Below, piece after piece: positions 10,463-40,065 of a stretch of DNA of 64,000 bases. The notes below the pieces were generated by a model. It had not been told where the DNA came from. It was given only the letters and a program-made list of their open reading frames with translations, and ran no database searches. Both the position numbers and the translations under genes were made by a program. Numbering within the stretch: the stretch's first letter is position 1; every line of letters starts with the position of its first letter. The stretch lies in the NCBI RefSeq assembly GCF_005049235.1, contig NZ_SUMD01000013.1, forward strand, positions 1-64,000. The letters run 5' to 3'. The stretch comes from Rhodococcus oryzae. GTDB lineage: Bacteria; Actinomycetota; Actinomycetes; Mycobacteriales; Mycobacteriaceae.

Positions 10463-10523
10463 GCCGAGTGTGCAGCTACCCACGCTCCCTCTCGGCATGT
10501 GCCCCGACAACTGCACACTCGGC
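10463..10523 (+). repeat. 61-bp palindromic repeat, copy A
   Basis: Its ends are GCCGAGTGTGCAG and CTGCACACTCGGC, a perfect 13-bp inverted repeat around a 35-bp core. The same ends and exactly the same length occur at 23026, 24045, 24571 and 40005. This copy lies between the rpsR2 terminator and the 3' end of the leftward lipoprotein gene, 2 nt from its stop codon. The core near the right end (CCCCGACAA) is shared with copy B. Confidence 0.85.
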
Positions 10524-10525
10524 CG

Positions 10526-11314
10526 TCAGCTGCGAACCACGTCGAGCAACTCGGGATCGACGACATCGGCCAGCCGGTCCCACGGCACGGTGATCACCAC
10601 CAGCCCGATCGCGTGCGGGCCCACCTGATAGTCCGAGAAGTGGATCTCCATCCCGGCGGGCGTCGGCAGCCAGTTCGCGAAGTTGAGCTCGGTGGGCGCG
10701 ATCCCCTCGCGCTCGAATTCCTCGCCTGCCGCGGTGGCAGGCAGCAACCGCGCGGACTCCTCGGAGAGCCGGTTCAGCCCGGCCTGCAGATCGGGAAACA
10801 GCGCCGCAAGCGTGATCGGCTGGGCATCGCCGACGCCCACGACCACCGTGGCCACCAGCGGGGTGGGGTGGGCCCCGGGCGGGTTGGCATTCCACGAGGT
10901 CACCAGCAGGCCGCTGACCACACTGTCCCCGATCCGAGCGAACGCCTCCCGACCCTCCAACGTGAACCGTTCATCGCCGGGGCCGTCGATCTGGTCTTGC
11001 AACGCCGCCGCGACCGATTCGTTGAACTCGGCGGCGACCGCGGGATTGCCGCCTTCGATCCGCGGCAGCGTGACGTCGTAGCGAACGCGCCCGGTGTCGC
11101 CGGTCGACCGGATGGTGGTCGCGATGTATGGCCCGGCGGCCTGCGGATCGTCGGCCGTGGATGGCGTCACCTCCGATGTCGCAGCCGGGGAGGACGACTG
11201 CATCGCCGACGGCTCGGGCACCGCCGTCCCACCGCCGCCCGAGGAACAGGCGGCCAGGCCGGCCAGGAGCACGAGCGCCACGGCTCCTCGGTGCAGGACA
11301 CGGGACGCTCGCAT
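10526..11314 (-). CDS. Lipoprotein with RsiV/DUF3298-like domain
   Basis: A 262-residue predicted lipoprotein. The signal segment ends in the lipobox LAAC-SSGGGG at about residues 21-24. A Ser/Thr/Pro linker follows, and then a folded domain beginning TTIRSTGDTGRVRYDVTLP. Its later part (SLAALFPDLQAGLNRLS, then FSDYQVGPHAIGLVVITVPW) resembles RsiV-type DUF3298/DUF4163 domains, which bind ligands outside the cell. The ATG at 11314 is preferred, with AGAGGA upstream; another ATG lies three codons earlier. No sigma factor lies nearby, so an anti-sigma role is not supported. The exact function is unknown. Confidence 0.75.
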   Translation of the reverse strand: MRASRVLHRGAVALVLLAGLAACSSGGGGTAVPEPSAMQSSSPAATSEVTPSTADDPQAAGPYIATTIRSTGDTGRVRYDVTLPRIEGGNPAVAAEFNESVAAALQDQIDGPGDERFTLEGREAFARIGDSVVSGLLVTSWNANPPGAHPTPLVATVVVGVGDAQPITLAALFPDLQAGLNRLSEESARLLPATAAGEEFEREGIAPTELNFANWLPTPAGMEIHFSDYQVGPHAIGLVVITVPWDRLADVVDPELLDVVRS

Positions 11315-11437
11315 GGGGTGCATCCTCTCGACGGGGTGGATCCATGATGCGCCCCGCGCCTGTCCCGCGAGGCGCACCGGGGTTCCCCGCGTGGCGGACG
11401 ACTAGACTCTTGCGGGTTCTATGAGGAGGTCCGCGGG

Positions 11438-12364
11438 GTGTCAGGTGTGTTCGCGGGCTTCACGGTCATCTTCGTCGTCATAGCCATCGGCTACATCCTC
11501 GGCCGGACACGGGTGCTCGGCGAGCACGGCGAATTCGTGCTCGGGCGGTTGGTGTTCTTCGTCGCAACCCCGGCGCTGCTCTTCGACACCCTCGCCACCG
11601 CCGACCTGGCGACGGTCTTCTCCCCCACCCTCGCGGTGGCCGCGGCCACGGCCTTCGCGGTCGGCGGCGTGTACCTGGCCATCGCGCTCGGCTGGCTGCG
11701 CAGGCCCCTGCCCGAATCCACGATCGGGGCGCTGGCCGCCTCCTACGTGAACTCGGCCAACCTCGGCATCCCGATCTCGGTGTTCGTGCTCGGCGACGCG
11801 TCGTTCGTGGCGCCGCTGCTGCTGTTCCAGATCGTGGTGTACTCCCCGATCGCGCTGACCGCGCTCGACCTGGCGACCACCCGCAAGGGCACCTCGATCC
11901 GCGACACCCTCATCACCCCGTTCCTCAACCCCATCGTGGTCGCCGGGATCGCCGGACTCGTGGTCGCCATCGCCGGGTGGACGCTGCCGGAATCGCTGAT
12001 CCAGCCGTTCCGGATCATCGGCGGGGCCTCGGTGCCGGGGGCGCTGCTGGCCTTCGGGTTGTCGCTGTACGGGGTCCGCGTGCTGCAGCGCGGCGTCAGC
12101 CCTCGCCGCGAGATCGCGCTCGCCTCGGTGCTCAAGATCCTGGTCCAGCCGGTGCTGGCCTACCTGATGGCCCGCTTCCTGCTCGGCCTCGACGGCCACG
12201 ACCTGTTCGCCGTGGTTGTCGTCTCCGCGCTGCCGACCGCGCAGAACGTGTTCGTGTACGCAAGCCGCTACCAGCGCGGCACGGTGCTCGCCCGCGACAC
12301 CGCCCTGGTCACCACTCTGGCCTCGATCCCCGCCATCGCACTCGTCGCCTGGGCGCTGGCCTGA
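11438..12364 (+). CDS. AEC-family (auxin efflux carrier-like) transporter
   Basis: A 308-residue membrane protein with about ten helices and a central break, the pattern of the AEC/YfdV family of organic-acid carriers. Family features include ARP-like GRLVFFVATPALLFDTLA near residue 35, YVNSANLGIPISVFVLG near 105 and ALPTAQNVFVYASRY near 265. A GTG start at 11438 follows ATGAGGAGG, a strong ribosome site. The gene stands alone between a leftward lipoprotein gene and a small rightward lipoprotein gene. Its substrate cannot be read from sequence; malate, malonate or similar acids are typical. Confidence 0.88.
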   Translation: MSGVFAGFTVIFVVIAIGYILGRTRVLGEHGEFVLGRLVFFVATPALLFDTLATADLATVFSPTLAVAAATAFAVGGVYLAIALGWLRRPLPESTIGALAASYVNSANLGIPISVFVLGDASFVAPLLLFQIVVYSPIALTALDLATTRKGTSIRDTLITPFLNPIVVAGIAGLVVAIAGWTLPESLIQPFRIIGGASVPGALLAFGLSLYGVRVLQRGVSPRREIALASVLKILVQPVLAYLMARFLLGLDGHDLFAVVVVSALPTAQNVFVYASRYQRGTVLARDTALVTTLASIPAIALVAWALA

Positions 12365-12420
12365 CCCGCCGAACTTTCGGGGAGGGCCGCCCACCGCGCC
12401 GCGCGCGTTACGGTGAGGTC

Positions 12421-12891
12421 ATGCGCACCCTCGTCGTCGCGGCCCTGCTGAGCCTGGCGCTTGCCGGCTGCGCCGGCGGCGACTCCTCGGACCCGGAAAC
12501 CGCCCCGAGCTCGCCCGCGGTGACCACGCAGGCACCGATCGTCGATGTGACGAGCCCGGCGCCGCCGCCGGTGAACGACCCCAACGCCAAGCCCGGCATG
12601 GTGTTCACGGCCGACCCCACCATCGTCGATGCGCACCCCGCCCCCTTCGAGTCCTACACCGTGGTGGGCGAGGCAGGCGACCGCGTGGCCGTGCACTTCA
12701 CCGCCGGGGCCCCCGAGTGCTACGGCGCCGATGCCACCGTCACCGAGTCCGCCTCCAGCGTCACCATCGCGTTGCGCACCGGCACCAGGGCGGACGCGGT
12801 GGACCGGCTCTGCGTCATGATCGCGGTGCAGGCCACCCTCGAGGTGCAGCTCGCCGCGCCCCTCGGCAACCGACAGGTGATCAGTGACTAG
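12421..12891 (+). CDS. Small predicted lipoprotein
   Basis: A 156-residue protein with a signal peptide and lipobox (LALAGC, Cys17), a Pro/Ser/Thr linker, and a compact domain from about residue 75. Two cysteines, in APECYG and DRLCVM, may form a disulfide. The start at 12421 is the only sensible one for the signal peptide. It follows the AEC gene by 56 nt and converges on the VWA gene at 12907. I do not recognise a named family. Confidence 0.75.
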   Translation: MRTLVVAALLSLALAGCAGGDSSDPETAPSSPAVTTQAPIVDVTSPAPPPVNDPNAKPGMVFTADPTIVDAHPAPFESYTVVGEAGDRVAVHFTAGAPECYGADATVTESASSVTIALRTGTRADAVDRLCVMIAVQATLEVQLAAPLGNRQVISD

Positions 12892-12906
12892 CGCCAACCG
12901 ACCCGA

Positions 12907-14919
12907 TCAGCGCCGACGCAGGCGCATGTAGTCGCTGACCACGGCCGCACCGAGCCCGTCCAGGTCCGGCGCCACCACCCGGCCGCCGACCCGCTGCGCC
13001 ATCTTGTCGACCACCCTGGCCAGCCCCGGGTCGTCGCCGAGCCGGAATATCGTCACCGCAGCGCCGAGCCGCGCGAGGTTGTCGAACTCGCGGACGGTGA
13101 GCCCCAACGTCTTCGGGTGTGGTGGATAGTCGAAGAAGGCGTGCCCGTCCGGTTCCAGGTGTGCCGTCGGTTCCCCATCCGTGACGATGAGGACGACCGG
13201 TTGCGCGTTCGGATTGCGCCGCAGGTGCCTGCCCGCGAGCAACAACGCGTGGTGGAGGTTGGTGCCCTGGTCCCAGGCGCCGTCGAGCCCCGCCAGCTCG
13301 GCCGGGGTGAGCTGCTGCGCCAGTCGGCCGAACGCGATCAGCTGGAGGTCGTCGCCGCGAAAGCGCGTGGTGATCAGGTGGTTCAGCGCAAGGGCCGTGC
13401 GCTTCATCGGCACCCACCTGCCGTCCATCACCATCGAGAACGAGGTGTCGACGAGCAGCGCGACCGCGGCGTGCACGCGCTGCTCGGTCTCGGCGACCTC
13501 GACGTCCGAGACCTGCAGCTGAATACGATCCGACGTCAGCGGATTCCCCTGCTGCGCGGCCCGGAGCACCGCGTTCGTCACCGTCCGGGTCACGTCCCAC
13601 GGTTCGGTGTCACCGAACTCCCAGCCCCTGCTGGCGCCCGTCGGCTCCCCCGTCGCGCCTGCCCGCTGGGTGTCGCGCTCGCCGCTCCGACCCGAGAGTC
13701 GCTGCGCCACATCCCGGAACGCCGACTGCCCGAGCCGGCGCATGGCCTTCGGGGAGAGCCGCCACTGGCCGTCCGCCCCGCGGGCGAGGAAGCCCTGCCG
13801 CTGCAGCGCCCGCTCCAGCTCGGCCAGCGTGCGGGCGTCGGCCGCCGCGCCGTCACCGAGCTGTCGGGCCAGGGCCTCGGGGTCGATGTCGTCGAGCTGC
13901 GCGCCCGCGTACTGCTGCGAGAGCTGCTCGGCGAGCTGCTCCAGCTCGGCGATGTCCGCAAGGGCCCCCGTCCCCTCCCCGAGGCCCATGCCGTCGTCGC
14001 CCCGAAAGCGCTGGGTACCGTCCCAGTCCTCGCCTGGACGCGCCGCCCGCAGGTTCGCGTCCAGGCGGTCCAGCTGATCGATCAGGCTTGGGCTGCCGAA
14101 CGCCTGCTGCGCCAGCGCGTCCAGCTCGGCGCGCTGCTCCGTGGTGAGCGAGTTGCGCAGCCGCTGCGCGGCCGCGGCCCGCCGGGCCAGCGAATCGAGC
14201 AGCTCCTCGGTGTTACGCGGGTTCTCCGGGAAGTAGTCGCCGTGCGTCGCCATGAACTCGTCGAAGTCGGACTGGGTGTCCTCACCGCGAGAGTGCTTGT
14301 CCAGCAGGTCGTTCAGGTCGCGGAGCATCGCGTCGATGCCGGCGCGATCCTCATCGGTCGCGCCGGCGAGGGCCTCCTTCATCCCCGCGAACCGCTGATC
14401 GAGCAGCTCTCGTCCGAGCAGCTCGCGGATCTTCTCGTAGTCCTCGCGGGCCGACGCGTCGCGCCAGCGGTACTCCGACAGGTCCCGGACGGCCTGGGCC
14501 GTCGACGACGGCAGCTCGTCGAGCTGCAACTCGGAGAACCGAGCGTCGTCGTCCAACGCGCGCGCCAGCTCCTTGCGCTCGGCGAGCAGCGCCCGCTCCA
14601 ACAGCTCACGGACCTCGTCGAGGGTGCCACCGAGATGATTGCGCTCCAACAGCTCTCGCCTGCGCCGATTCGCCCGAGCGGCGAGATCGTCGAGCCCGCG
14701 GGTGTCCGCGGTGCCGCGGCGCATCAGCTCCCGCAGCGCCCGTCGGGGCGAGGAGCCCTCGAGCACGTCGTTGCCGATCGCCTCCAGCGCCTCCCGGAGG
14801 TCCACGGGCGGGAGCAGCGGGTCCGGTCCACCCTGGTACGGCCCGTACCGCGCCCGGTGCGGATCACCCCGACCCCCGGACCGGGGACGCCGGGAACCCG
14901 GCCGCGGCGGCTCGGTCAT
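12907..14919 (-). CDS. VWA-domain protein, ChlD/CoxE-like partner of the MoxR ATPase
   Basis: A 670-residue cytosolic protein. Residues 1-430 are mostly helical and charged, and the C-terminal von Willebrand A domain has the MIDAS motif DTSFS, a conserved Thr in QGTN and an Asp in VTDGEPT. Its start codon overlaps the stop of the ATPase gene as ATGA, so the two are made together. Such MoxR-VWA pairs act like metal-chelatase or protein-maturation machines, in which the AAA+ ring and the VWA protein remodel a client. The orthologous pair in M. tuberculosis lies next to purH (Rv0958-Rv0959, from memory). The client is unknown. Confidence 0.88.
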   Translation of the reverse strand: MTEPPRPGSRRPRSGGRGDPHRARYGPYQGGPDPLLPPVDLREALEAIGNDVLEGSSPRRALRELMRRGTADTRGLDDLAARANRRRRELLERNHLGGTLDEVRELLERALLAERKELARALDDDARFSELQLDELPSSTAQAVRDLSEYRWRDASAREDYEKIRELLGRELLDQRFAGMKEALAGATDEDRAGIDAMLRDLNDLLDKHSRGEDTQSDFDEFMATHGDYFPENPRNTEELLDSLARRAAAAQRLRNSLTTEQRAELDALAQQAFGSPSLIDQLDRLDANLRAARPGEDWDGTQRFRGDDGMGLGEGTGALADIAELEQLAEQLSQQYAGAQLDDIDPEALARQLGDGAAADARTLAELERALQRQGFLARGADGQWRLSPKAMRRLGQSAFRDVAQRLSGRSGERDTQRAGATGEPTGASRGWEFGDTEPWDVTRTVTNAVLRAAQQGNPLTSDRIQLQVSDVEVAETEQRVHAAVALLVDTSFSMVMDGRWVPMKRTALALNHLITTRFRGDDLQLIAFGRLAQQLTPAELAGLDGAWDQGTNLHHALLLAGRHLRRNPNAQPVVLIVTDGEPTAHLEPDGHAFFDYPPHPKTLGLTVREFDNLARLGAAVTIFRLGDDPGLARVVDKMAQRVGGRVVAPDLDGLGAAVVSDYMRLRRR

Positions 14920-16313
14920 CCGCTGTACACCAGCTGTCCGTCGTCGTCGGGGAACTTCGCGATGCGCCGGGCCAGGTACAGCCCCTCCAACGCCAGCTCC
15001 ACCGCGGACGCCCGCGCCCCCGTGCTCTCGGCGCCGAAGCGCGCGGCCACCTCGTCCAGCACGTCGATCTCGGGCAGCTCGCCGAGCAGGTCCTTCGCGG
15101 TCACACGGTCGCCGGTGACGACGGGTCCGCCCGCCTCCACCGCCGCCACCAGGGGCGCCAGGTCCACGCCGCCGAGCCGCTCGCGCACCGTGTCCGCGGT
15201 CGCCCGGCGCAGCAGGTGTTCGAGCACGTCCAACTCGCGCCCCTCCTCGCCGGACTCGAACTCCACCTTGCCGCGCAGCACCTCGATGACCGTGCCGAGA
15301 TCGACCGGCCGTGCCACCGGATCGGACTCACCGAGCACCGCCCCGCGGTGCACGGCGGCCGCGCTGACGGTCTCGGCCCCGGCCACCGCGAACCGGGCGG
15401 ACACCCCCGAACGCTGGTCCACCGAGGTGGACTCGCGCAGCAGCCGGGTGAACCGGGCCAGGATCTCCAGGAGGTGGTCGGGCACCTCGGCGCGCAGGTG
15501 CGCCTCCTGCTCGATCACCGCGATCTCGTCCTCGAGCGCGGCCGGGTAGTGGGTGCGGATCTCGGCGCCGAAGCGGTCCTTGAGCGGGGTGATGATGCGG
15601 CCGCGGTTCGTGTAGTCCTCCGGGTTCGCGCTGGCCACCAGGACCACGTCCAGCGGCAGCCGCAGCGTGTACCCGCGCACCTGGATGTCGCGCTCCTCCA
15701 TCACGTTCAGCAGCGAGACCTGGATCCGTTCGGCCAGGTCGGGCAGCTCGTTGATGCCGACGATGCCGCGGTGCGCGCGTGGGACCAGCCCGAAGTGGAT
15801 GGTCTCCGGATCGCCCAGGCTGCGGCCCTCGGCGACCTTCACCGGATCCACGTCGCCGACCAGGTCCGCCACCGAGGTGTCCGGGGTCGCGAGCTTCTCC
15901 GAGTAGCGCTCGTCGCGGTGCCGCCAGGCCACCGGCAGCTCGTCCCCCAGGACGGCGGCGCGGCGGATCGAGGCGGGCGTGATCGGCTCGTACGGGTGCT
16001 CACCCAGCTCCGAACCCTCGATCACCGGGGTCCACTCGTCGAGCAGCAGCGGCAAGGTCCGCAGCAGCCGGGTCTTGCCCTGGCCACGCTCACCGAGCAG
16101 CACCACGTCGTGGCCTGCGATCAGGGCTCGCTCGAGCTGCGGCAACACCGTGTCGCCGAAACCCACGATCCCCGGCCACGGCTCGCGGCCGTCGCGCAGC
16201 GCCGCGAGCAGGTTCTCTCGCATCTCGTCCCGGACCGGTCGCAGCACGTGTCCGGACGCGCGCAGTTCGCCGACCGTGCGCGGAAAACCATCGGGGGCCA
16301 TGGCAGTCACCAC
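14916..16313 (-). CDS. MoxR/ChlI-like AAA+ ATPase
   Basis: A 465-residue AAA+ ATPase of the magnesium-chelatase/MoxR kind. Walker A is LLGERGQGKTRLL near residue 75; the Walker B region GIVGINELPDLAERIQ is followed by NVMEERDIQ and sensor 1 in LVASANPEDYTNRG. An Arg-rich second domain follows. The GTG at 16313 is used here; the ATG at 16301 is equally possible and no clear ribosome site decides. It is translationally coupled to the VWA protein downstream. The pair probably forms a chaperone that activates or inserts a cofactor into an unidentified target. Confidence 0.88.
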   Translation of the reverse strand: MVTAMAPDGFPRTVGELRASGHVLRPVRDEMRENLLAALRDGREPWPGIVGFGDTVLPQLERALIAGHDVVLLGERGQGKTRLLRTLPLLLDEWTPVIEGSELGEHPYEPITPASIRRAAVLGDELPVAWRHRDERYSEKLATPDTSVADLVGDVDPVKVAEGRSLGDPETIHFGLVPRAHRGIVGINELPDLAERIQVSLLNVMEERDIQVRGYTLRLPLDVVLVASANPEDYTNRGRIITPLKDRFGAEIRTHYPAALEDEIAVIEQEAHLRAEVPDHLLEILARFTRLLRESTSVDQRSGVSARFAVAGAETVSAAAVHRGAVLGESDPVARPVDLGTVIEVLRGKVEFESGEEGRELDVLEHLLRRATADTVRERLGGVDLAPLVAAVEAGGPVVTGDRVTAKDLLGELPEIDVLDEVAARFGAESTGARASAVELALEGLYLARRIAKFPDDDGQLVYSG

Positions 16314-16496
16314 TTCACGCTACGAGCGTTCGGCGAATTCGGCACGCGTGTGGCCAAATCGGCATCTACCGCGGCGGGGGCGACGTGGCCGATTCGAGAC
16401 CTCGGATCGCCGACACCGCGGCACACCTGGGGGTAGTTTTCCGCGGGTGCGGGTTGCACTCGGCAGTCCGCCGCGTCGAGATGCGGAGTACCCATC

Positions 16497-16790
16497 ATGA
16501 CTGCGGAGCACGATCACGACACCACCCCACCTGCGAACAAGCGCCTGCTGGCCCTCGCCGTGGTTCTGCTGCTGCTCCCGATCGTCGCCATCCTGTGGGT
16601 CTCGACCTACGCAAGGACGGGCCCAGAACTGGGCGGCGTGCCGTTCTTCTTCTGGTACCAGTTCCTCTGGGTGTTCCTATGCGCAGGCGCCACCTGGTCG
16701 GCCTACAAGATCGTGTTGAAGGCCCGCCCGCACCGGCCGATGACCGAGGGGCCCGCGCCCGAGGTCACCGACGGCGGGTCCGACCGGTGA
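16497..16790 (+). CDS. DUF3311 small membrane protein
   Basis: A 97-residue protein with two membrane helices (about 15-36 and 45-65), the second in the family pattern GVPFFFWYQFLWVFLCAGATW. DUF3311 proteins usually sit directly before a sodium:solute symporter and are thought to be its small subunit. Here its stop overlaps the symporter start as GTGA, which supports that. The ATG at 16497 starts the N-terminal polar tail. Confidence 0.88.
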   Translation: MTAEHDHDTTPPANKRLLALAVVLLLLPIVAILWVSTYARTGPELGGVPFFFWYQFLWVFLCAGATWSAYKIVLKARPHRPMTEGPAPEVTDGGSDR

Positions 16791-18451: not shown

Positions 18452-18506
18452 CGGGGAACGGCCCGGAATCCGACGGGCCGACACCGTCGACTCCTAGACT
18501 CTGCCC

Positions 18507-19094
18507 ATGGAGACCTGGCTGCTGCCCGCCCTGCTCGGACTCGGACTGGCCGCCGCCACCGGCCTGCGCACCTTCCTGCCGCTGTTGATGCTCAGCGCGG
18601 CCGCGCACTTCGAACTGTTCGGCATCTCCCTCGGTGAGAGCTTCGCGTGGGTCGGGTCGACCGGCGCGTTGGTCGCCCTTGCCGCCGCCACCGCCACCGA
18701 ACTGCTCGCGGATCTGATTCCGTTGGTGGACAACGCACTCGGCGTGTTCGGCACCTTCACCCGACCGATCGCGGCGGCGATCGCCGCGGGCGCGGTGTTC
18801 ACCGATCTCGGCCCCACCGGCGCAGTGATCGCCGGCATCATCGTCGGTGCGCCGACGGCGCTGGCGTTCAGCGCGGCGCAGACCGGAACCCGCGCCGTGA
18901 GCACCGCGACCACCGGCGGTCTCGCGAACCCGGCGCTGTCGGTGATCGAGGACGGGGTCTCGTTCGGCATGGTGCTGGTGGCGTTCCTGCTGCCGCTGCT
19001 CATCCCGCTGGTGCTGGGACTGATGCTGTGGTTCGCCTGGAAGGGCGCGCGCCGGTTCAGCCCGGGATCTGGCCGGCCAGCCCGTTCCGCTTGA
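18507..19094 (+). CDS. DUF4126 membrane protein
   Basis: A 195-residue protein with about five or six hydrophobic segments and the DUF4126 pattern: LAAATGLRTFLPLL near residue 15, ELLADLIPLVDN near 70 and TFTRPIAAAIAAGAV. The function of this family is not known. The start at 18507 follows the MctP stop by 55 nt. Its last 38 nt overlap the 3' end of the convergent hydrolase gene at 19057, so the final Arg/Ser/Gly-rich residues are encoded by DNA under double constraint. Confidence 0.82.
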   Translation: METWLLPALLGLGLAAATGLRTFLPLLMLSAAAHFELFGISLGESFAWVGSTGALVALAAATATELLADLIPLVDNALGVFGTFTRPIAAAIAAGAVFTDLGPTGAVIAGIIVGAPTALAFSAAQTGTRAVSTATTGGLANPALSVIEDGVSFGMVLVAFLLPLLIPLVLGLMLWFAWKGARRFSPGSGRPARSA

Positions 19095-19917: not shown

Positions 19918-20019
19918 GCGCGAACACCTTCCCTTTCGATAGTCGCCCGAGGGCGGGTTGCGCACCGGCACAGCATGTCTCCGGGCCGGCGACGGGGAGT
20001 TCCTGGCGTGAAAGCTATG

Positions 20020-20033
20020 CCGCGCTCTCGCGG
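20020..20033 (-). terminator. Small hairpin between the PucR gene and the hydrolase gene
   Basis: The stem CCGCG/CGCGG closes a CTCT loop in the 203-nt gap after the PucR-type gene. It is short and lacks a T-run, so a terminator role is only possible. Nothing else was recognised in the gap. Confidence 0.3.
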
Positions 20034-20120
20034 CGTGCAGCCGAAATCCGATCTCCGCGCGTGCCTTGTGCCCGAGCACAATCGGGCGGCCCCTGTACTG
20101 GCTCGGCTGCCCAGATCGGG

Positions 20121-23025: not shown

Positions 23026-23086
23026 GCCGAGTGTGCAGCTACCGTCGCGCCTACCCGAGCGATGCCCCGACAACTGCACTTTCGGC
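23026..23086 (+). repeat. 61-bp palindromic repeat, copy B
   Basis: Ends GCCGAGTGTGCAG and CTGCACTTTCGGC; length 61 bp. It lies in the divergent promoter region, 83 nt before the Vsr-like endonuclease gene. The right part of its core, ATGCCCCGACAA, is close to copy A. Confidence 0.85.
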
Positions 23087-23168: not shown

Positions 23169-24038
23169 ATGGGGGAATTCGACGAACCGTTCTCGGGCAG
23201 CGCGGCCGTTGCGGTCGGAGCGGTGACCGACCGGCAGCTACGCCTGACCTTCCATCGGATCCATCGAGATGTGTACATCGCCAAGGGAATCGGTCTCGAC
23301 GCGATCCTGCGCGCGCGGGCGGCGGCACTCTGGGCGGGCGAGGACGGGATCCTCGCGGGGATGTCCGCCGCCGCGGTGCACGGCACCAAGTGGATCGACC
23401 CGGGCACCCGCGCGGAGCTGTTCCGGACGGGCAGCAGGCGCAGCACGTCGGGAGTGTTGATCCACGGCGACGCACTGGCCCCGGACGAGATCTGCCTCGC
23501 AGGCGGGTGGCTCGCGTCGACCCCGGCCCGCACCGGCTACGACCTCGGCCGGCGGCTCCCGTTCGACCGCGCGGTCGAGGTGCTCGACGCGCTCTGCAAC
23601 GCCACCGACACGAAGCCCGAGGAGATCCGTGCGCTGGCCGAGAATCACAGCGGGGCAAGGGGAATCGTCCAGCTCCGCCAGGTGCTCGAACTCGTCGACG
23701 GCGGCGCGGAGTCGCCACAGGAGACCCGAACCCGGCTGCTGTTGATCGACGGTGGGTTGCCGCGCCCGTCGACGCAGATCCTCGTCCGGGACGAGCGCGG
23801 CCGCGTCGTCGCGCGGTCGGACATGGGGTGGGAACGCTGGAAGGTTCTCGTGGAATACGACGGCGAGCAGCACTGGACCGACGAGAGTCAACGCACATGG
23901 GATGTCGAGCGACTGGAGGTGCTGGCGAACCTCGGGTGGCGGGTGATCCGCGTCGGTTCCGCGCAGCTGCGACTGCGTCCGCACACGGTCGCGAAGCGTA
24001 TCCGTGCGGCGCTATGGGAGGCGGGCGCCCCGGTCTGA
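23169..24038 (+). CDS. AbiEi-like/DUF559 protein with Vsr-type endonuclease domain
   Basis: A 289-residue protein of a type common in mycolic-acid bacteria. The N-terminal half resembles AbiEi-type or regulator-like domains (LTFHRIHRDVYIAKG, then GILAGMSAAAVHG). The C-terminal part is a DUF559/Vsr-like PD-(D/E)XK domain: strand VVARSDMGWERWKVLVEYDG, then EQHW, DVERLEVLANLGWRVIRV. The Asp in RSDMG and the Glu in VEYDGEQH are likely metal ligands. The ATG at 23169 fits the conserved start. The gene is bracketed by 61-bp repeats B (83 nt upstream) and C (6 nt after the stop). A repeat-associated nuclease role is an inference; housekeeping repair or antitoxin-like roles are also possible. Confidence 0.78.
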   Translation: MGEFDEPFSGSAAVAVGAVTDRQLRLTFHRIHRDVYIAKGIGLDAILRARAAALWAGEDGILAGMSAAAVHGTKWIDPGTRAELFRTGSRRSTSGVLIHGDALAPDEICLAGGWLASTPARTGYDLGRRLPFDRAVEVLDALCNATDTKPEEIRALAENHSGARGIVQLRQVLELVDGGAESPQETRTRLLLIDGGLPRPSTQILVRDERGRVVARSDMGWERWKVLVEYDGEQHWTDESQRTWDVERLEVLANLGWRVIRVGSAQLRLRPHTVAKRIRAALWEAGAPV

Positions 24039-24044: not shown

Positions 24045-24105
24045 GTCGAGTGTGCAGATTCCCCCGTCCCATCTCGGACGATGCGCCGGCAGATGCACTC
24101 TCGGC
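24045..24105 (+). repeat. 61-bp palindromic repeat, copy C
   Basis: Ends GTCGAGTGTGCAG and ATGCACTCTCGGC; length 61 bp. It starts 6 nt after the stop codon of the endonuclease gene and precedes the leader region of the 63-residue ORF. Its core (ACGATGCGCCGGCAG) aligns with copies A and B. Confidence 0.85.
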
Positions 24106-24570: not shown

Positions 24571-24631
24571 GTCGAGTGTGCAGTTACCGGGGCATCGCCC
24601 GGGTAGGAACGACGAAAGGTCCACACTCGGC
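24571..24631 (+). repeat. 61-bp palindromic repeat, copy D
   Basis: Ends GTCGAGTGTGCAG and GTCCACACTCGGC; length 61 bp. It begins 7 nt after the stop of the 63-residue ORF. Its right end (AGGTCCACACTCGGC) is closest to copy E and is reused in a second hairpin at 24611-24656. Confidence 0.85.
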
Positions 24632-24656
24632 GGGAAGCGAGTGTGCACCTTTCGTC
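24611..24656. repeat. Long hairpin between the 63-aa gene and purH
   Basis: A 19-bp inverted repeat with one mismatch (24611-24629 with 24638-24656) around an 8-nt loop, between two convergent genes. It carries GAGTGTGCACCTTTCGTC on the right arm. It may act as a bidirectional terminator, though no T-run follows. The left arm is shared with repeat D. Confidence 0.7.
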
Positions 24657-29566: not shown

Positions 29567-29617
29567 GAACGAGGGGCACCTTCCCGCGCGATGAGCGCGG
29601 GCAGGTGCCCCTCGTTC
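29567..29617 (-). terminator. Rho-independent terminator of sucC-sucD
   Basis: A 15-bp outer stem (29567-29581 with 29603-29617) encloses an inner CCCGCGC/GCGCGGG stem. On the minus strand it is followed by CTTTTTC. It lies 36 nt after the sucD stop codon and is the strongest terminator in the window. Confidence 0.9.
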
Positions 29618-29652
29618 GGTGAGACCGGAGCGGGGTCAGCCGCTCAGTTCAC

Positions 29653-30567: not shown

Positions 30568-30580
30568 TGTTCTAGTCCCT

Positions 30581-31750: not shown

Positions 31751-31777
31751 CTGCTCACCGTCTCGTCAGTGTTGACG

Positions 31778-31800
31778 CCCGCTCGAGGGGTAAGAGCGGG
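31778..31800 (-). other. Hairpin in the sucC 5' region
   Basis: CCCGCTC and GAGCGGG pair around a 9-nt loop, 27 nt before the sucC start. It would be present in the leader RNA if transcription starts near the TAGATAAAG stretch further upstream. No known riboswitch was recognised. Confidence 0.35.
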
Positions 31801-31895
31801 TCCGTCCCGGACTTTATCTAGTTGAATCAATCGTCTATCGACCGCATTGATGCTATGTGGCATATCTCACGGCACAAGGGGGCGTGAGCGTCAGC

Positions 31896-33785: not shown

Positions 33786-33899
33786 GCGGACAGACGCTAG
33801 TGGGTCATCGGCGTCGGTCTCGACCGAACTTCACAAGAATCCAGCTCGCCCCGTTACAGCCGCCTTCCGGCGTATTCCCAGGACCGGCCGTGATCACTC

Positions 33900-33915
33900 T
33901 GTGATGCATCTCACA
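33900..33915 (+). promoter_or_regulatory. Perfect CRP/GlxR-type site before the M23 peptidase gene
   Basis: TGTGATGCATCTCACA matches TGTGA-N6-TCACA in all ten defined bases. It lies 117 nt before the GTG at 34017, within a 231-nt intergenic region that otherwise holds the promoter. In actinobacteria such sites bind cAMP-responsive CRP, which controls several cell-wall hydrolases. Confidence 0.75.
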
Positions 33916-34016
33916 TATCACCACGAGTTAGCGCTAGGAGTTGCGGCGCTCGCAACCGTTTCGTTACCGTCGCTTTGGTCAAAGTCACAGACAGATCACG
34001 AACAGGAAGGCGGCAA

Positions 34017-35090
34017 GTGTCCAGGCATCGCGCACCCTTCCAATCCAGCCGCTTCGCCCCGCAGGAGCAGGCCGACGAGGCCTCAACGACGGTTTACTCG
34101 ATTTCCGCAGGTCACGCCGTAGAGCCTCGCTACGAGGCCCCGGTTGAACCCAGTAGATCGCGCTTCGAATACGCAGGCGACAACGAGACCACGCAGACTT
34201 ATTCGCATCGCGTGCCGGATCGTTACATCGGGTCCGCGAATCTCGGAACACCGCGCTCCACGAACTACCGCGCCGCCTCGCTCGACCAGCTCGACACCTC
34301 TTTCGATTCGGACCTCGCAGCTCCCGCTCGCCGCGGTGGAGCGCACCGGATCCCCACTCCCCCCACCGCCCTCAAGGGCCGCGCCGCAGTCATCGCGGTC
34401 GCCGCAGGCGCCGTCGTCGCCGCGGGCCAGGCAGGCCTGAGTGGCCCCAGCAGCACCGATACCGCCGAGCTCAATCTGGCCTCGGACGACAGCTCCACGG
34501 GCACCGCCGCCACCGCCGAGCCGCAGGCCGCCCAGTTCGCCGCCGACACGGCCGCGAACACGGGCTCCCAGGCTCCGCAGGTCCTCAACATCGCGGCCCC
34601 GACGGACCTCAGCCAGTTCTCGAACCTGCTCGCCAAGGGCCAGCGGTTCAGCGAGGAGCGTGCCGCCCGCGAGGCCGCCGCCCGTCGCCCCCTCTTCGTA
34701 CTGCCCGCCGTCGGCTCCTACACCTCCGGCTACGGCGCCCGGTGGGGCACGCTGCACGCAGGCGTCGACATCGCGAACGCCATCGGCACACCGATCTACG
34801 CGGTCGCCGACGGCGAGGTCATCGACTCCGGGCCCGCACAGGGCTTCGGCATGTGGGTACGGCTGCGGCACGCCGACGGCACCGTCACCGTCTACGGCCA
34901 CATCGACTCGTCCAACGTCTCGGTCGGCCAGAAGGTCATGGCGGGCGATCAGATCGCACGGATGGGCAACCGCGGCTTCTCCACCGGACCGCACCTGCAC
35001 TTCGAGGTGCACCTGGGCGGCGAGAACAAGATCGATCCGCTCCCCTGGCTCGCGACCCGCGGCATCAGCCTCGGCGTCGAGCGCGACTAG
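34017..35090 (+). CDS. M23-family peptidase (LytM-type), membrane-anchored
   Basis: A 357-residue peptidoglycan hydrolase candidate. A polar cytosolic part of about 110 residues is followed by one hydrophobic segment (GRAAVIAVAAGAVVAAG), a Ser/Thr/Ala linker and the M23 domain from about residue 225. Zinc ligands are visible in GTLHAGVDIAN (HxxxD) and GPHLHFEV (HxH), with a further His in VYGHIDSS. It should therefore be active. The GTG at 34017 has GGAAGG upstream; a TTG at 33975 is less likely. The orthologue in M. tuberculosis lies between sucC and uvrD1. The perfect CRP-type site upstream suggests cAMP control. Confidence 0.88.
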   Translation: MSRHRAPFQSSRFAPQEQADEASTTVYSISAGHAVEPRYEAPVEPSRSRFEYAGDNETTQTYSHRVPDRYIGSANLGTPRSTNYRAASLDQLDTSFDSDLAAPARRGGAHRIPTPPTALKGRAAVIAVAAGAVVAAGQAGLSGPSSTDTAELNLASDDSSTGTAATAEPQAAQFAADTAANTGSQAPQVLNIAAPTDLSQFSNLLAKGQRFSEERAAREAAARRPLFVLPAVGSYTSGYGARWGTLHAGVDIANAIGTPIYAVADGEVIDSGPAQGFGMWVRLRHADGTVTVYGHIDSSNVSVGQKVMAGDQIARMGNRGFSTGPHLHFEVHLGGENKIDPLPWLATRGISLGVERD

Positions 35091-35190
35091 GAACGACCCC
35101 CACCCCGGCATTCGACCGGCGGAACGGCGCTGCCTGCATTAGCCTTCGGTGCGCCAGACTCCGTTGACGTCTACGTAGCAAGGGGTTCGC

Positions 35191-35589
35191 GTGAACTACT
35201 TCCGAGGGTCCGTCGTCGCCGCCGCTCTCACCGGCGCAGTCTCGCTTGCACTGGCGCCCACCGCATCGGCCGCCGCCTATCAGATCACCGCCATGCCGCC
35301 GATCGGAACCGTGTACTCGGACAACCTGGTGACGCTCGCCATGGCCGTCAGCCCCGTCCCGGCCGGTGCGGACGCGACCACCCCGGTCCTGATCCACATC
35401 GCCGAACCGGACGGCGACGACCGGACCCTCACCGTCCCCCTGACCCTCGGCGGGGCGACAGTGGCCACCCGGGTCAACGAACCCGGACGGTACGTCGCGG
35501 TCTTCACCTTCGACGCGCCCGGCGGCGACCCGGCCACGACCACACTGCAGTTCGACGCCATCCCGTCGCCGTTGGGAAGTGCCTCCTAG
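35191..35589 (+). CDS. Secreted protein of unknown function (132 aa)
   Basis: A 132-residue secreted protein. The signal peptide ends TASA near residue 27. The mature part is beta-rich with no cysteines and looks like a small Ig-like or carbohydrate-binding sandwich (PVLIHIAEPDGDDRTLTVPL, then YVAVFTFDAPGG). The start is a GTG at 35191. It follows the M23 peptidase by 100 nt on the same strand and converges on uvrD1. No named family was recognised. Confidence 0.7.
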   Translation: MNYFRGSVVAAALTGAVSLALAPTASAAAYQITAMPPIGTVYSDNLVTLAMAVSPVPAGADATTPVLIHIAEPDGDDRTLTVPLTLGGATVATRVNEPGRYVAVFTFDAPGGDPATTTLQFDAIPSPLGSAS

Positions 35590-35595
35590 CGACAG

Positions 35596-38052
35596 CTAGA
35601 GCTTGACCATCGGAACGCCGCCGATGAGCATCAGACGCACCTTGCCCGCCGAGCCGAAGTCGACGGTGACCGTCGCCGTCGGCCCACTGCCCTTTGTCTC
35701 CAAAACCGTTCCGAGACCGTACTTGTCGTGGCTGACGCGATCGCCGACGGCGAGCACCAGGTGGTTGTTGCGAGCCCGCGCGGCACCGAAGCTCGGTGTC
35801 GCGTTGCCCGACCCGCCGTAGCCCTGACCGCCACCGAAGCCGCCGCCACCGCCGTAGCCCTGGCCGCCGCGGGGACGCCCGCCCCCGATCGCGCCACCGG
35901 CGCCGGTACCCGGATCCTCCCGCCGCCAGTGCAGCAGGTCGGACGGAATCTCCTGCAGGAATCGTGATTCCGGGTTGGTGATCGGCTGACCCCACGCCGA
36001 GCGCATGATCGCGCGGGTGAGGTACAGGCGATGCCGGGCCCTGGTGATGCCGACGTAGGCCAGCCTGCGTTCCTCGGACAGCTCCGCCGGGTCGCCGAGC
36101 GCCCGCATGTGCGGGAACTGGCCGTCCTCCCAGCCGGTCACGAAGACCACCGGGAATTCGAGGCCCTTCGCGGTGTGCAGGGTCATCAGGGTCACCACGC
36201 CGTCGCCGTTGTCGGGCAGCTGGTCGGAATCGGCCACCAGCGACACCCGCTCGAGGAAGGCGGCGAGCGAGCCCGGGTCCGGCTCGCCCTCGGTGGGGTC
36301 GAGATCGCCGTCGGCCGCGGCCGCGAGCGCGCCCTCGAGACTCTCGTCGATCTCAGTCTCCACGCCCGCGGCATTGCGCGCATCGGAGCTGAATTCCTGC
36401 GCCACGCTGACCAACTCGTTGAGGTTGTCCAGTCGCGCGCCGTCCTGCGGATCGCTGCTCGCCTCGAGCTCCGCCCGGTAGCGGGTCCGGTCGAGCACGG
36501 CCTCGACCACCTCGCCGATGTCGATCAGCCCGGTGTCGTCGGGCTGCAATGTCTCGCGGATGTCGTCCATCATCTCGAGGAACGCCGAGATCGCCTTCTG
36601 CGAGCGGGTGTTCAGCAGCGGCACCACACCGTCCGCCGCGTCCCGCAGCGCCTGCGCGAAGCCGATGCCGCGCTGCTCCGAGTGCACGGCCACGCAGGCC
36701 TCGGCGCGGTCGCCGATGCCGCGGCGCGGGGTGTTGAGGATCCGGCGCAGGCTGACGGTGTCGTCGGGGTTCTGCAGCACCCGCAGGTACGCGACCACGT
36801 CGCGAACCTCCTTGCGCTCGTAGAACCGGACGCCGCCGACCACCTTGTACGGCAGGCCGAGGCGGATGAAGATCTCCTCCAGCGCCCGCGACGAGTTGTT
36901 GGTGCGGTAGAACACCGCGACCTCACCGAACTTCGCGTCGCCCGCGTCCACCAGCTTGTCGATCTCGGAGGCGACGAAGTAGGCCTCATCGTGCTCGTTG
37001 TCGGCGACGTAGCCGGTGATCAGCTCGCCCTCGCCGGACTCGGTCCACAGCCGCTTCTCGCGCCTGCCGGTGTTGCGGGAGATCACCGCGTTCGCGGCCG
37101 ACAGGATGTTCTGGGTGGATCGGTAGTTCTGTTCGAGCAGGATGGTCCTGGCGTCGGGGTAGTCGCGCTCGAACTCCTCGATGTTGCGGATGGTGGCGCC
37201 GCGGAACGCATAGATCGACTGGTCCGCGTCGCCGACCACGCACAGCTCGGCGGGCGGGACCAGGGACCCGCTGTCCGCGATCCCTCCGACCAGCTCGCGC
37301 ACCAGCACGTACTGCGCGTGGTTGGTGTCCTGGTACTCGTCGACCAGCACGTGCCGGAACCGGCGCCGGTAGTACTCGGCCACCTGCGGAAAGTTCTGCA
37401 GCAGCGCGACGGTCTCGCCGATCAGGTCGTCGAAGTCCATCGCGTTGGCCGCGCGCAGTCGAGCCTGGTAGTGGCCGTATACCTTCGCGACCAGCCGGAC
37501 CAACTCGTTCGGATCCTTGTCGGCGTCGGCCGCGGCCCGCTCCGGGTCGATCAGCTCGTTCTTGAGGTTCGAGATGTGCGTGGCCAGCAGGCGCGCGGAG
37601 TACCGCTTCGCGTCGATCTCCAGGTCCTTCGAGATCATCGTCAGCAGCCGGCGCGAATCGTCCGCGTCGTAGATGGTGAAGTTCGAGTTCAGACCCGGCA
37701 GCAGCGCGGCCTGCATCCGCAGGATCCGCACGCAGCTCGAGTGGAAGGTCGAGACCCACATGTTGTTGGCCCGGGGCCCGACGAGATGCGCCACGCGCTC
37801 GCGCATCTCCGCGGCGGCCTTGTTGGTGAACGTGATCGCCAGGACCTGCCCGGGCGCGACGTCCCGCTCGGCGAGCAGATACGCGATCCGACGGGTCAGC
37901 ACGGCGGTCTTGCCCGAGCCCGCGCCCGCCACGATCAGCAGCGGCGAACCGGCGTGCACCACTGCCTCGCGCTGCTGCGGGTTGAGCCCCTCGAGGAGGG
38001 CCGCCGAAGGAGTGCGGGTACCCGCTTGAGCTGCTGCTGAGAAAGTGTTCAT
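35596..38052 (-). CDS. uvrD1: Superfamily 1 DNA helicase UvrD1/PcrA
   Basis: An 818-residue SF1A 3'-5' helicase for nucleotide excision repair and conflict resolution. Motifs in order: Walker A GAGSGKTAVLTRR (about 43-55), LAITFTNKAA (Ia), VDEYQDTN (II), GDADQSIYAFRGA (III), QNYRSTQNIL (IV), LMTLHTAKGLEFP (V) and VGITRARHRL (VI). The C terminus carries the PcrA tudor-like domain (DRVSHDKYGLGTV) that binds RNA polymerase. A Gly-rich linker precedes it. The start at 38052 is the standard one. Its place beside chorismate mutase matches mycobacteria. Confidence 0.97.
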   Translation of the reverse strand: MNTFSAAAQAGTRTPSAALLEGLNPQQREAVVHAGSPLLIVAGAGSGKTAVLTRRIAYLLAERDVAPGQVLAITFTNKAAAEMRERVAHLVGPRANNMWVSTFHSSCVRILRMQAALLPGLNSNFTIYDADDSRRLLTMISKDLEIDAKRYSARLLATHISNLKNELIDPERAAADADKDPNELVRLVAKVYGHYQARLRAANAMDFDDLIGETVALLQNFPQVAEYYRRRFRHVLVDEYQDTNHAQYVLVRELVGGIADSGSLVPPAELCVVGDADQSIYAFRGATIRNIEEFERDYPDARTILLEQNYRSTQNILSAANAVISRNTGRREKRLWTESGEGELITGYVADNEHDEAYFVASEIDKLVDAGDAKFGEVAVFYRTNNSSRALEEIFIRLGLPYKVVGGVRFYERKEVRDVVAYLRVLQNPDDTVSLRRILNTPRRGIGDRAEACVAVHSEQRGIGFAQALRDAADGVVPLLNTRSQKAISAFLEMMDDIRETLQPDDTGLIDIGEVVEAVLDRTRYRAELEASSDPQDGARLDNLNELVSVAQEFSSDARNAAGVETEIDESLEGALAAAADGDLDPTEGEPDPGSLAAFLERVSLVADSDQLPDNGDGVVTLMTLHTAKGLEFPVVFVTGWEDGQFPHMRALGDPAELSEERRLAYVGITRARHRLYLTRAIMRSAWGQPITNPESRFLQEIPSDLLHWRREDPGTGAGGAIGGGRPRGGQGYGGGGGFGGGQGYGGSGNATPSFGAARARNNHLVLAVGDRVSHDKYGLGTVLETKGSGPTATVTVDFGSAGKVRLMLIGGVPMVKL

Positions 38053-38179
38053 CGTCTGTCAACGCTACCGCCGCGCACCGACAGCGGCGCCCCCGGACCG
38101 GCCCGCGCCCCCGCCGATGGTCAGCCCCTCGTACCCGTGGCAAACTGTGATTCCTGATCTGACACGAGGAGAAATACAC

Positions 38180-38473
38180 ATGGGCGGCTCAGTTCCATCG
38201 GATGCCACCGACCCCGACCTCCCCACCAGCGAGGCCGAGATCGAGGAGCTCCGACTGGAGATCGACCGACTGGACGCCGAGATCCTCGCCGCGATCAAGC
38301 GCCGCAGCGAGGTCTCGCAGATCATCGGCCGCACCCGGATGGCCTCCGGCGGCCCCCGCCTCGTGCACAGCCGCGAGATGAAGGTTCTCGAGCGCTTCAG
38401 CGACCTCGGCCAGGAGGGTCACACCCTGGCGATGTTGCTGCTGCGCCTCGGCCGCGGCCGGCTCGGCCAGTAG
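38180..38473 (+). CDS. Chorismate mutase, AroQ type
   Basis: A 97-residue all-helical chorismate mutase, converting chorismate to prephenate for Phe and Tyr. Catalytic positions lie in ELRLEIDRLDAEILAAIKRR and GRTRMASGG, with LVHSREMKVLERF in helix 2. The ATG at 38180 has GAGGAG upstream and gives the short, mycobacterial-type enzyme; in those bacteria it needs the DAHP synthase for full activity. It is divergent from uvrD1, as in M. tuberculosis. A 13-bp sequence from its 3' end is repeated just after the stop (38485-38497). Confidence 0.93.
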   Translation: MGGSVPSDATDPDLPTSEAEIEELRLEIDRLDAEILAAIKRRSEVSQIIGRTRMASGGPRLVHSREMKVLERFSDLGQEGHTLAMLLLRLGRGRLGQ

Positions 38474-38512
38474 AACACCAGCCGGCTCGGCCAGGCCGAC
38501 CGGAGCCCGCCG

Positions 38513-39964
38513 CTACTGCAGCGCGATGTACTTGGTCTCCAGGTACTCCTCGATGCCCTCGCTGCCGCCCTCGCGTCCGAACCCGGAGGACTTGACGCCC
38601 CCGAACGGCGCGGCGGCGTCGGAGATCACGCCCCTGTTCACGCCGACCATCCCGGTCTCGAGTGCCTCTGCCACCCGCAGCGCCCGATCCAGGCTCTGCG
38701 TGTAGATGTAGGCGGCCAGTCCGTATTCGGTGTCGTTGGCGGCGGCGATGCCCTCCTCCTCGGTGTCGAACCCGGCGATCGCGGCGACCGGACCGAACAC
38801 CTCCTCGCGCAGGATGCGGGCCTCCACGGGCACGTCAGCCAGCACCGTCGCCGGGTAGAAGTAGCCCGGCCCGCCCGGTGCCTGGCCGCCGAGTCGCACC
38901 TGCGCCCCCACCGCGACCGCGTCCCGCACCAGCTCGCTGACGGTCTCGAGCTGGGCGGGGTTGATCAGGGGTCCGAGCTTCGAATCCGGGTCGGTGCCCG
39001 GCCCGAGGGTCATCGACCGCATCCGCTCGGTCAGCTTGGCACTGAACTCATCGCGGACCGAGTTCTGCACGTGGAACCGGTTCGCCGCGGTGCAGGCCTC
39101 GCCGCCGTTGCGCAGCTTGGCCAGCATCGCCCCGTCCACCGCGGCGTCCAGATCGGCGTCGTCGAACACGACGAAGGGCGCGTTCCCGCCGAGCTCCATC
39201 GAGGTGCGCAGCAGCCCCTTCGCGGACTGCTCGATCAGTTTGCGCCCGACTCCGGTTGACCCGGTGAAGGTGAGCTTGCGCAGCCGCGGGTCGTCGATCA
39301 GCGGCGCCGTCAGCGCGCCCGCGTTCGAGGTCGGCAGCACCGAGAGGACGCCGTCGGGCAGCCCGGCGTCGGCGATGAGCTGTCCGAGCAACAGCATGGT
39401 CAGCGGCGTCTCGGCGGCGGGCTTGACGATCATCGTGCAGCCTGCAGCGAGGGCGGGCCCGATCTTGCGGGTCCCCATCGCCAGCGGGAAGTTCCACGGG
39501 GTGATCGCCAGGCACGGCCCGACCGGGGCCTTGCCGACCAGGATCCGGCCGGTGCCCGCGGGCGCGTGGGTGTAGCGGCCCGCGATCCGCACCGCCTCCT
39601 CGCTGAACCAACGGAAGAACTCGGCGCCGTAGGCCACCTCGCCCTTGCTCTCGGCCAGCACCTTGCCCATCTCCAGCGTCATCAGCAGGGCGAAGTCGTC
39701 GGCGCGGGCGGTGATCGCCTCGAACACGGCCCGCAGGATCTCGCCGCGCTTGCGCGCCGGGGTGGCCGCCCACTCGCGCTGGGCGGCAGCCGCCGCATCG
39801 AGCGCCAGCAGGCCGTCGGCGGGGCCTGCGTCCGCGACCTCGGCGAGGGGCTCGCCGGTCGCGGGGTTGACCACCGTGAACGTCGCGCCGCCTGCCGCGT
39901 CCACCTGTTTGCCGCCGATCCAGAGCTTGGTCGGGATCGACTCGATCAGAGTTCGCTCGTCCAT
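38513..39964 (-). CDS. NAD(P)-dependent aldehyde dehydrogenase (succinic semialdehyde type)
   Basis: A 483-residue aldehyde dehydrogenase. It shows NAD-binding TPWNFPLAM, FTGSTGVGRKL, catalytic Glu257 in MELGGNAPF and catalytic Cys291 in GGEACTAANR. The closest group by eye is GabD-like succinic semialdehyde dehydrogenase, which sends GABA carbon into succinate. The ATG at 39964 is the proper start; further upstream lies repeat E. The gene is divergent from pgi and stands alone. Confidence 0.93.
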   Translation of the reverse strand: MDERTLIESIPTKLWIGGKQVDAAGGATFTVVNPATGEPLAEVADAGPADGLLALDAAAAAQREWAATPARKRGEILRAVFEAITARADDFALLMTLEMGKVLAESKGEVAYGAEFFRWFSEEAVRIAGRYTHAPAGTGRILVGKAPVGPCLAITPWNFPLAMGTRKIGPALAAGCTMIVKPAAETPLTMLLLGQLIADAGLPDGVLSVLPTSNAGALTAPLIDDPRLRKLTFTGSTGVGRKLIEQSAKGLLRTSMELGGNAPFVVFDDADLDAAVDGAMLAKLRNGGEACTAANRFHVQNSVRDEFSAKLTERMRSMTLGPGTDPDSKLGPLINPAQLETVSELVRDAVAVGAQVRLGGQAPGGPGYFYPATVLADVPVEARILREEVFGPVAAIAGFDTEEEGIAAANDTEYGLAAYIYTQSLDRALRVAEALETGMVGVNRGVISDAAAPFGGVKSSGFGREGGSEGIEEYLETKYIALQ

Positions 39965-40004
39965 GGCTCCATACTGCCCGCCCGCGCGCGTATTGGAAGG
40001 CCCC

Positions 40005-40065
40005 GTCGAGTGTGCAGGTCCCGTCGCGTCGGCCGAGTGGTCCCGCCCGTAGGTGCACACTCGGC
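40005..40065 (+). repeat. 61-bp palindromic repeat, copy E
   Basis: Ends GTCGAGTGTGCAG and GTGCACACTCGGC; length 61 bp. It lies between the divergent aldehyde dehydrogenase and pgi genes, 40 nt from the former start codon. Its right end is like copy D. Confidence 0.85.

What the first reader, a model, noticed from the sequence alone, without database searches (positions are those of the whole stretch)
10463..40065. Five intergenic palindromic repeats of exactly 61 bp, all in the same orientation
Copies at 10463, 23026, 24045, 24571 and 40005 share ends GYCGAGTGTGCAG and TGCACACTCGGC and an NTNCC step after the left arm, while the cores vary. Length is fixed at 61 bp although the core diverges, so spacing matters. 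Two sub-groups show: A, B and C share an ATGYSCCG-rich core, D and E share AGGTSCACACTCGGC. Three copies sit 2-7 nt from a stop codon. This looks like a structured-DNA or RNA element family (REP-like, attC-like or 3' regulatory) that I cannot name.
Basis: seen in the sequence. Interest (0 to 1): 0.85.

Follow-up and report, generated by a model that had tools for sequence, protein, structure and literature searches.

The report
Nuclease genes with cognate palindromic repeats
The five 61-base palindromes are copies of a dispersed repeat whose matching gene, encoding a predicted DNA-cutting enzyme, sits in the same window between two of them; similar gene-plus-palindrome units with other palindrome sequences occur in many actinobacteria, which points to an undescribed kind of bacterial repeat-and-nuclease system.

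Summary
A covariance model finds at least 48 places in the genome, 42 exactly 61 bp; 35 of 48 lie within 31 bp of a gene's 3' end, 13.6% expected; arm pairs covary.

B and C flank a 289-aa gene (23169-24038) joining an AbiEi-like region to a Vsr/EDxHD-type nuclease. Of 60 such genes sampled gene-first, 45 have matching sequence on their two sides (28 of the 60 come from one genus); ordinary genes 9/135 and 2/58. Palindromes lie near 26/60 (5') and 25/60 (3'), against 2/60 and 2/59 farther out. Arms differ between units; length (median 60) and often a central CTCG are shared. In six congeners copy number falls with loss of the gene.

Best reading: the palindromes are dimer target sites of a cognate nuclease, a REPtron- or homing-like system on an unrelated enzyme (no Y1 transposase). 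Binding, cleavage and mobility are inferred; solo copies look old. Ten literature searches listed no description.

The parts
10463..10523 (-). Element A, solo copy, 2 bp from the stop of the minus-strand gene 10526-11314
   Evidence: core orientation
23026..23086 (-). Element B, 5' palindrome of the nuclease unit, 82 bp before the gene start
23169..24038 (+). Cognate gene, 289 aa: AbiEi-like region (1-177) + Vsr/EDxHD-type PD-(D/E)XK nuclease domain (about 181-287; E185, D218, H235, D245)
   Evidence: Pfam; PADLOC AbiEi; AlphaFold2 pLDDT 95.9; VIA-align; residue conservation
24045..24105 (-). Element C, 3' palindrome of the nuclease unit, 6 bp after the stop codon
24571..24631 (+). Element D, 7 bp after the stop of a 63-aa ORF; its right part also forms a second hairpin with the following bases
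24611..24656 (.). Second long inverted repeat overlapping D's right arm (GACGAAAGGT...ACCTTTCGTC); a diverged form is seen in G004
   Evidence: read directly; relatives
40005..40065 (+). Element E, solo copy between two divergently transcribed genes (one of the minority not at a 3' end)

Best explanation
The 61-bp palindromes are target sites of the nuclease encoded between B and C. Two protein copies would bind one palindrome, the AbiEi-like winged-helix domains reading the arms and the two EDxHD/Vsr-type nuclease domains meeting over the centre, where CTCG is often conserved. The fixed length of about 60 bp is then the footprint of the dimer. Related genes elsewhere carry other arm sequences, the same at both ends of one gene, so specificity has diverged while length and centre stayed. 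Cutting or nicking at such sites, followed by repair, would spread palindromes (and sometimes the gene) to new places. Copies survive mainly just behind stop codons, where they do least harm. In effect this is a REPtron-like or homing-like selfish or domesticated system on an unrelated enzyme. SHOWN: gene-palindrome association, pairing of arms, fixed length, 3'-end bias, conserved catalytic-type residues, confident predicted fold, copy number following the gene in 6 congeners. INFERRED: binding, cleavage, dimerisation, mobility.
Against: No binding or cleavage data. No clean empty site of a solo element was found: of 20 solos tested against R. maanshanensis (G002), 14 lie at the same place (13 clear, 1 likely), 3 have an element beside one flank only, at 2 other genes stand instead, 1 was unresolved (one search scored 40 of 424 candidates). 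The 23 orthologous element pairs that could be aligned without gaps diverge like their flanks (arm 0.077, core 0.146, flank 0.084), with only 3 compensated changes, so present-day activity and selection on each solo are not shown. 24 of the 60 gene-first loci gave no palindrome pair even in a looser scan; 36 did and 26 passed the similarity cut; 15 of 60 flank pairs do not match. The 60 loci are not independent (28 from one genus). Among the 135 control genes, palindromes near the 3' side are not rare (26, against 8 near the 5' side and 2 on both), because those stretches were chosen for holding an element. Where the B-gene-C unit is absent (G001, G004) no solo remains. The genus comparison has only 6 related genomes.
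Confidence: 0.6

Rival explanations
1. Regulatory system: the AbiEi-like protein is an autoregulator that binds the palindrome 5' of its own gene as an operator; the 3' and dispersed copies are a regulon or roadblocks, and the nuclease domain has a repair or defence role.
For: AbiEi antitoxins repress their own promoter through inverted repeats (PMC7319586, abstract and passages); the 5' palindrome ends mostly 36-170 bp before the profile match; PADLOC AbiEi models match 32 of 36 proteins.
Against: Dispersed copies avoid 5' ends: 1 of 48 within 31 bp of a gene start (28.8% expected), 35 of 48 near a 3' end. Catalytic-type residues are invariant. No AbiEii-type toxin among the 10 neighbours of 5 units scanned, though 3 of the 10 match no Pfam family.
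Confidence: 0.2
2. The solos are bidirectional transcription terminators or 3' mRNA stabilisers, and the nuclease gene is incidental.
For: Hairpins more stable than shuffles (z -1.87 to -6.21 over both strands of A-E) right behind stop codons and often between convergent genes (15 of 48); covariation across the family.
Against: Does not explain cognate palindromes at both ends of the nuclease genes, fixed length with a directional core, or fewer copies without the gene. No terminator-like site with a T-run at B, C or D. Orthologous solos show little compensation.
Confidence: 0.1
3. The nuclease gene is passive cargo: the palindromes are ends of an ordinary mobile element (MITE-like), moved by a transposase elsewhere, and the unit is a composite.
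For: Unit flanked by direct copies in 15 of 28 units, inverted in 1, undecided in 12; unit present or absent between congeners.
Against: Different genes have different palindromes, matched at both ends; no target-site duplication was noticed on reading the flanks by eye; the one transposase family tested, PF01797, has 0 matches; weak matches in only 7 plasmid and 2 phage records.
Confidence: 0.06
4. Anti-phage defence: the protein cuts incoming DNA and the palindromes are chromosomal decoy or regulatory sites.
For: AbiEi and a few weak defence-model matches, nuclease fold.
Against: Units read closely sit among housekeeping genes (BaxI_1, thiolase, DHO_dh, PBP); palindromes are cognate to each gene.
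Confidence: 0.04

Closest known systems
REP elements with TnpA-REP/RAYT (REPtrons)
   Same: Dispersed extragenic palindromes; a helper gene near cognate palindromes; copy number correlated with the helper; helper not evidently mobile (definition from passages of PMC8266576).
   Different: Enzyme is a Vsr/EDxHD-type nuclease with an AbiEi-like region, not a HUH/Y1 transposase (0 matches in the genome); element about 61 bp with fixed length and often a central CTCG, while REPs are 20-40 bp and GTAG- or CGTC-tagged (PMC3733652, title and start of abstract in the listing).
EDxHD homing endonucleases (I-Bth0305I)
   Different: Gene stands between two copies of the presumed target, not in an intron; many solo targets in the genome; AbiEi-like DNA-binding part.
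AbiEi antitoxins (type IV TA; S. agalactiae AbiEi, M. tuberculosis Rv2827c)
   Different: Extra C-terminal nuclease; no known toxin partner beside the 5 units scanned; palindromes at both ends and dispersed.
Vsr / DUF559 (VsrA of Caulobacter)
   Different: No palindrome family and no AbiEi-like region is mentioned in the passages that I saw.

Membership tests
REP/REPtron (TnpA-REP) | Associated HUH/Y1 transposase (PF01797) | tested here: not met
   0 matches in the 5.37-Mb genome; control rang in 6 of 14 genomes
REP/REPtron (TnpA-REP) | Gene bordered by cognate palindromes that are also dispersed | tested here: met
REP/REPtron (TnpA-REP) | GTAG or CGTC tetranucleotide beside the palindrome | tested here: not met
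   15-base flanks of the 48 copies read by eye: no constant tetranucleotide next to the palindrome (no count made)
EDxHD homing endonuclease | Nuclease fold and E, D, H, D residues | tested here: met
   motif name from PMC3943268. That E185/D218/H235/D245 are the same four positions as in I-Bth0305I is my reading, not a residue-level alignment
EDxHD homing endonuclease | Cleaves the allele that lacks the gene, at the insertion site | not testable with these tools
   Unit present/absent alleles seen, no cleavage data
Type IV TA (AbiE) | AbiEi-like antitoxin domain | tested here: met
Type IV TA (AbiE) | Adjacent AbiEii/DUF1814 toxin gene | tested here: not met
   10 neighbours of 5 units scanned against Pfam, none is such a toxin; 3 of 10, both of the window's among them, match no family; other units not scanned
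Known structured RNA | Rfam family match | tested here: not met
   0 matches in the window at gathering thresholds
Integron attC | Integron integrase and gene-cassette array | not tested
   no integrase search was made

The most novel reading that the evidence does not exclude
A phylum-wide class of nuclease-driven palindromic elements: an AbiEi-type DNA reader fused to a homing-endonuclease-type nuclease spreads its own 60-bp palindromic target through chromosomes, with arm specificity diverging from paralogue to paralogue. It would be an independent invention of the REPtron principle, and perhaps related to the origin of AbiEi antitoxins.
Probability: 0.42. Interest if true: 0.92.

Novelty: categorically new. 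Interest (0 to 1): 0.85.

Why it matters
If right, repeated extragenic palindromes have arisen at least twice with unrelated enzymes, which makes the question of how REP-like sequences spread testable in a second system. It would also give a function to a little-studied protein family (DUF559/MTES_1575 with an AbiEi-like region) found in about a quarter of sampled actinobacterial genomes (78 of 296), and offer many natural nuclease-target pairs with long, divergent recognition sites.

Tried and rejected
Rfam: no match. RNA reading: all ten strands of A-E fold better than shuffles (z -1.87 to -6.21), but copies show no orientation bias. Phage origin: the pattern was absent from viral contigs; the protein is weak in 2 phage and 7 plasmid records. 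With the bare Pfam model DUF559 looked unassociated (4 genes in the genome, one near R1 elements); this changed when palindromes of any sequence were sought. A further AbiEi/DUF559-like hit in the genome (C31, L275) has no convincing palindrome pair, although its flank score of 15 counts among the 45; the C27 gene (L192) showed none. Synteny breaks at elements: 6 of 21 intergenic breakpoints (of 24) against 2.0 expected, a modest excess. Wobble asymmetry in the arms (GT/TG 46, AC/CA 22) hints at one preferred strand, but the cells are not independent. Similarity of residues about 129-168 to TALE repeats is weak (E 0.013, no stretch passing on its own) and was not built on. Two ordinary genes with high flank scores were looked at: one (L093) is flanked by another palindrome family, the other (L232) was not explained. 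Foldseek itself was not run; only the VIA-align second look was used, so other folds are not excluded. Literature: ten searches; in the listings (title and start of abstract) I saw no paper linking DUF559/AbiEi proteins with palindromic repeats; the library lacks most subscription journals. Passages only were seen of PMC3733652, PMC2267715, PMC7319586 (with outline and abstract), PMC12907096, PMC8266576, PMC3943268 and PMC12306157; other papers only as listings. RepRanger (PMC12306157, one passage) lists three Actinomycetota genomes; I saw nothing there on this family.
Full report
OBSERVATION. The five copies exist exactly where stated and are 61 bp. Their cores are directional; A, B, C are reversed relative to D, E, so the claim of one orientation is wrong and the two sub-groups are one family. 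A covariance model from 20 copies finds 94 strand-wise matches, i.e. 48 places, in the 5.37-Mb genome (150 of 7195 first-look candidates scored, so at least 48); 42 of 48 are exactly 61 bp. A two-mismatch search for the left arm gives 75 + 65 matches against 14 + 22 for the reversed pattern.

ANATOMY. Consensus: GYCGAGTGTGCAGYTGCCG - core with GCATCGNCCGAGWG - CGGCARCTGCACACTCGGC. On 41 of the 48 copies (6 of other lengths and 1 of another family dropped) the 18 arm pairs are 91.0% standard; 8 pairs have changes on both sides (36 cells; shuffles 19.4 +- 3.1, 0 of 500 reach it), and slid versions pair 23-44%. In 23 gap-free orthologous pairs with other species, however, arms (0.077) diverge about like flanks (0.084), cores more (0.146), and compensation is rare (3 both-sided kept pairs; 24 changes towards and 19 away from pairing). 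The covariation thus reflects sub-families present when copies arose more than maintenance at each site.

POSITION. With my own gene caller, 35 of 48 copies lie within 31 bp of a gene's 3' end (13.6% of random intergenic placements in the same stretches) and 1 of 48 within 31 bp of a 5' end (28.8%); orientation relative to a single adjacent gene is 12 same, 14 opposite. By neighbour arrangement: 21 tandem, 15 convergent, 5 divergent, 5 at contig or stretch edges, 2 inside a called gene. Many neighbours look like housekeeping genes (for example fba, purH, dnaX; names are my recognition of sequences).

SPREAD. In 41 genomes of the genus, family and order, 12 have a model match at E 0.01 or better, among them 6 of 6 in the genus. 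An arm-only pattern will include some chance hits.

THE COGNATE GENE. B and C bracket a 289-aa gene (82 bp and 6 bp away). In the element-only loci, relatives lie next to elements in Rhodococcus, Antrihabitans, Agreia and a Microbacteriaceae MAG, and about 590 bp away by the matched range in Psychromicrobium; in L144, L140 and L142 a palindrome lies on both sides. In the same genome the paralogue at C28 is flanked by its own palindromes on both sides, and the one at C23 has one immediately 5' and a second beyond a neighbouring 248-aa gene, none found 3'. The C28 family shows 10 places with the same 41-bp spacing among the first 100 of 135 matches listed; for the C23 family I saw 2 places and no excess over the reversed pattern.

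GENE-FIRST TEST. A profile of 11 proteins matched in 78 of 296 Actinomycetota genomes (at most 8 candidates scored per genome). I took 60 of the roughly 150 listed loci, mostly top hits; 28 come from four genomes of one genus (g37) and one from the window's genome, so they are not independent. Palindromes within 350 bp: 26/60 5', 25/60 3', 15/60 both; far flanks 2/60 and 2/59, shuffles 4/600 each, inside gene 0/60. The 5'-3' flank match lies above the 99th percentile of 854 swapped pairs in 45/60: 24/28 in g37, 21/32 elsewhere. Ordinary genes exceed the same score in 9/135 (stretches chosen because they hold an element; palindromes near them 8 on the 5', 26 on the 3', 2 on both sides) and 2/58 (neighbours of the 60 genes). 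With a looser scan, 38 of 63 loci (the 60 plus 3 own) gave a palindrome pair, 28 passing a similarity cut; their 56 palindromes have median length 60 (range 46-78). Arms agree within a unit (median 0.86) and not between units (0.42), and agree more for more similar proteins (Spearman 0.346, Mantel p 0.0005). A central CTCG/CGAG is found in 23 of 38 cores against 8.4 in shuffles (19 of the 28 units, the close relatives).

COMPARATIVE GENETICS. In six congeners, strand-wise matches and closest gene: G000 93, own; G002 103, 89% orthologue; G005 42, 77%; G003 38, decayed remnant at this locus; G004 17 and G001 8, none at E 1e-20. The whole B-gene-C unit is missing in G001 and G004 with no element left. 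At locus A, R. aetherivorans, Rhodococcus sp. SMB37 and R. yananensis have an element plus the nuclease gene where the window has a solo element and another gene. Two elements bracket a 9.4-kb segment beginning with a YrbE/MlaE-type permease (my reading) present here, where R. maanshanensis has a single element. Of 20 solos tested against R. maanshanensis 14 are at the same place (1 of them only likely), 3 have an element beside one flank, 2 sites hold other genes instead, 1 was unresolved. Units read in three other loci sit between genes ending towards them or among housekeeping genes.

MECHANISM. A palindrome of constant length with variable arms and a recurrent centre, beside a protein joining an inverted-repeat reader to a nuclease, is what a dimeric long-site endonuclease would need. 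Published relatives fit the size: I-Bth0305I dimerises on nearly 60 bp (PMC3943268, passages), Rv2827c binds inverted repeats spanning 59 bp (PMC7319586, passages). Spread by cutting and repair is inference; solos look old. The regulatory rival stays open for the 5' palindrome.

NOVELTY. It fails the defining enzyme test for REPtrons and the toxin test for AbiE (10 neighbours of 5 units), and does not look like an intron-borne homing gene. Ten literature searches listed nothing on it. I therefore call the kind new, while saying that it works like a REPtron or homing system only by inference.

Noticed in passing
window 54399-54448: A different 50-bp palindrome family (CGCCCGTGCGC...GCGCACGGGCG) with copies also at L085:670-719 and L093:795-842; centre again contains ACTCG, possibly solos of another paralogue.
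   Followed up: partly
G000:C27:460098-460234 and C29:294313-294449 (L077, L082): Tandem pairs of elements 15 bp apart near contig ends, beside a shared 46-bp palindrome (AATGCCTCGCATCGC...); similar pairs near contig ends in R. maanshanensis.
   Followed up: no
window 23169-24038, residues about 129-168: Weak profile similarity to TALE repeats (E 0.013), possibly only helical-repeat resemblance.
   Followed up: no
L342 (G003:C26:66000-68500), 532-590 and 1541-1599: Flanking palindromes of one unit are in inverted orientation with matching cores, unlike the direct arrangement where orientation could be told in most other units.
   Followed up: partly
L103 (Pyrinomonadaceae MAG) 6650: A 61-bp GAGTGTGCA palindrome outside Actinomycetota; could be chance or MAG mis-binning.
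   Followed up: no
G000:C23:352684-362238: Two elements at the ends of a 9.4-kb segment absent from R. maanshanensis, which has a single element there.
   Followed up: partly
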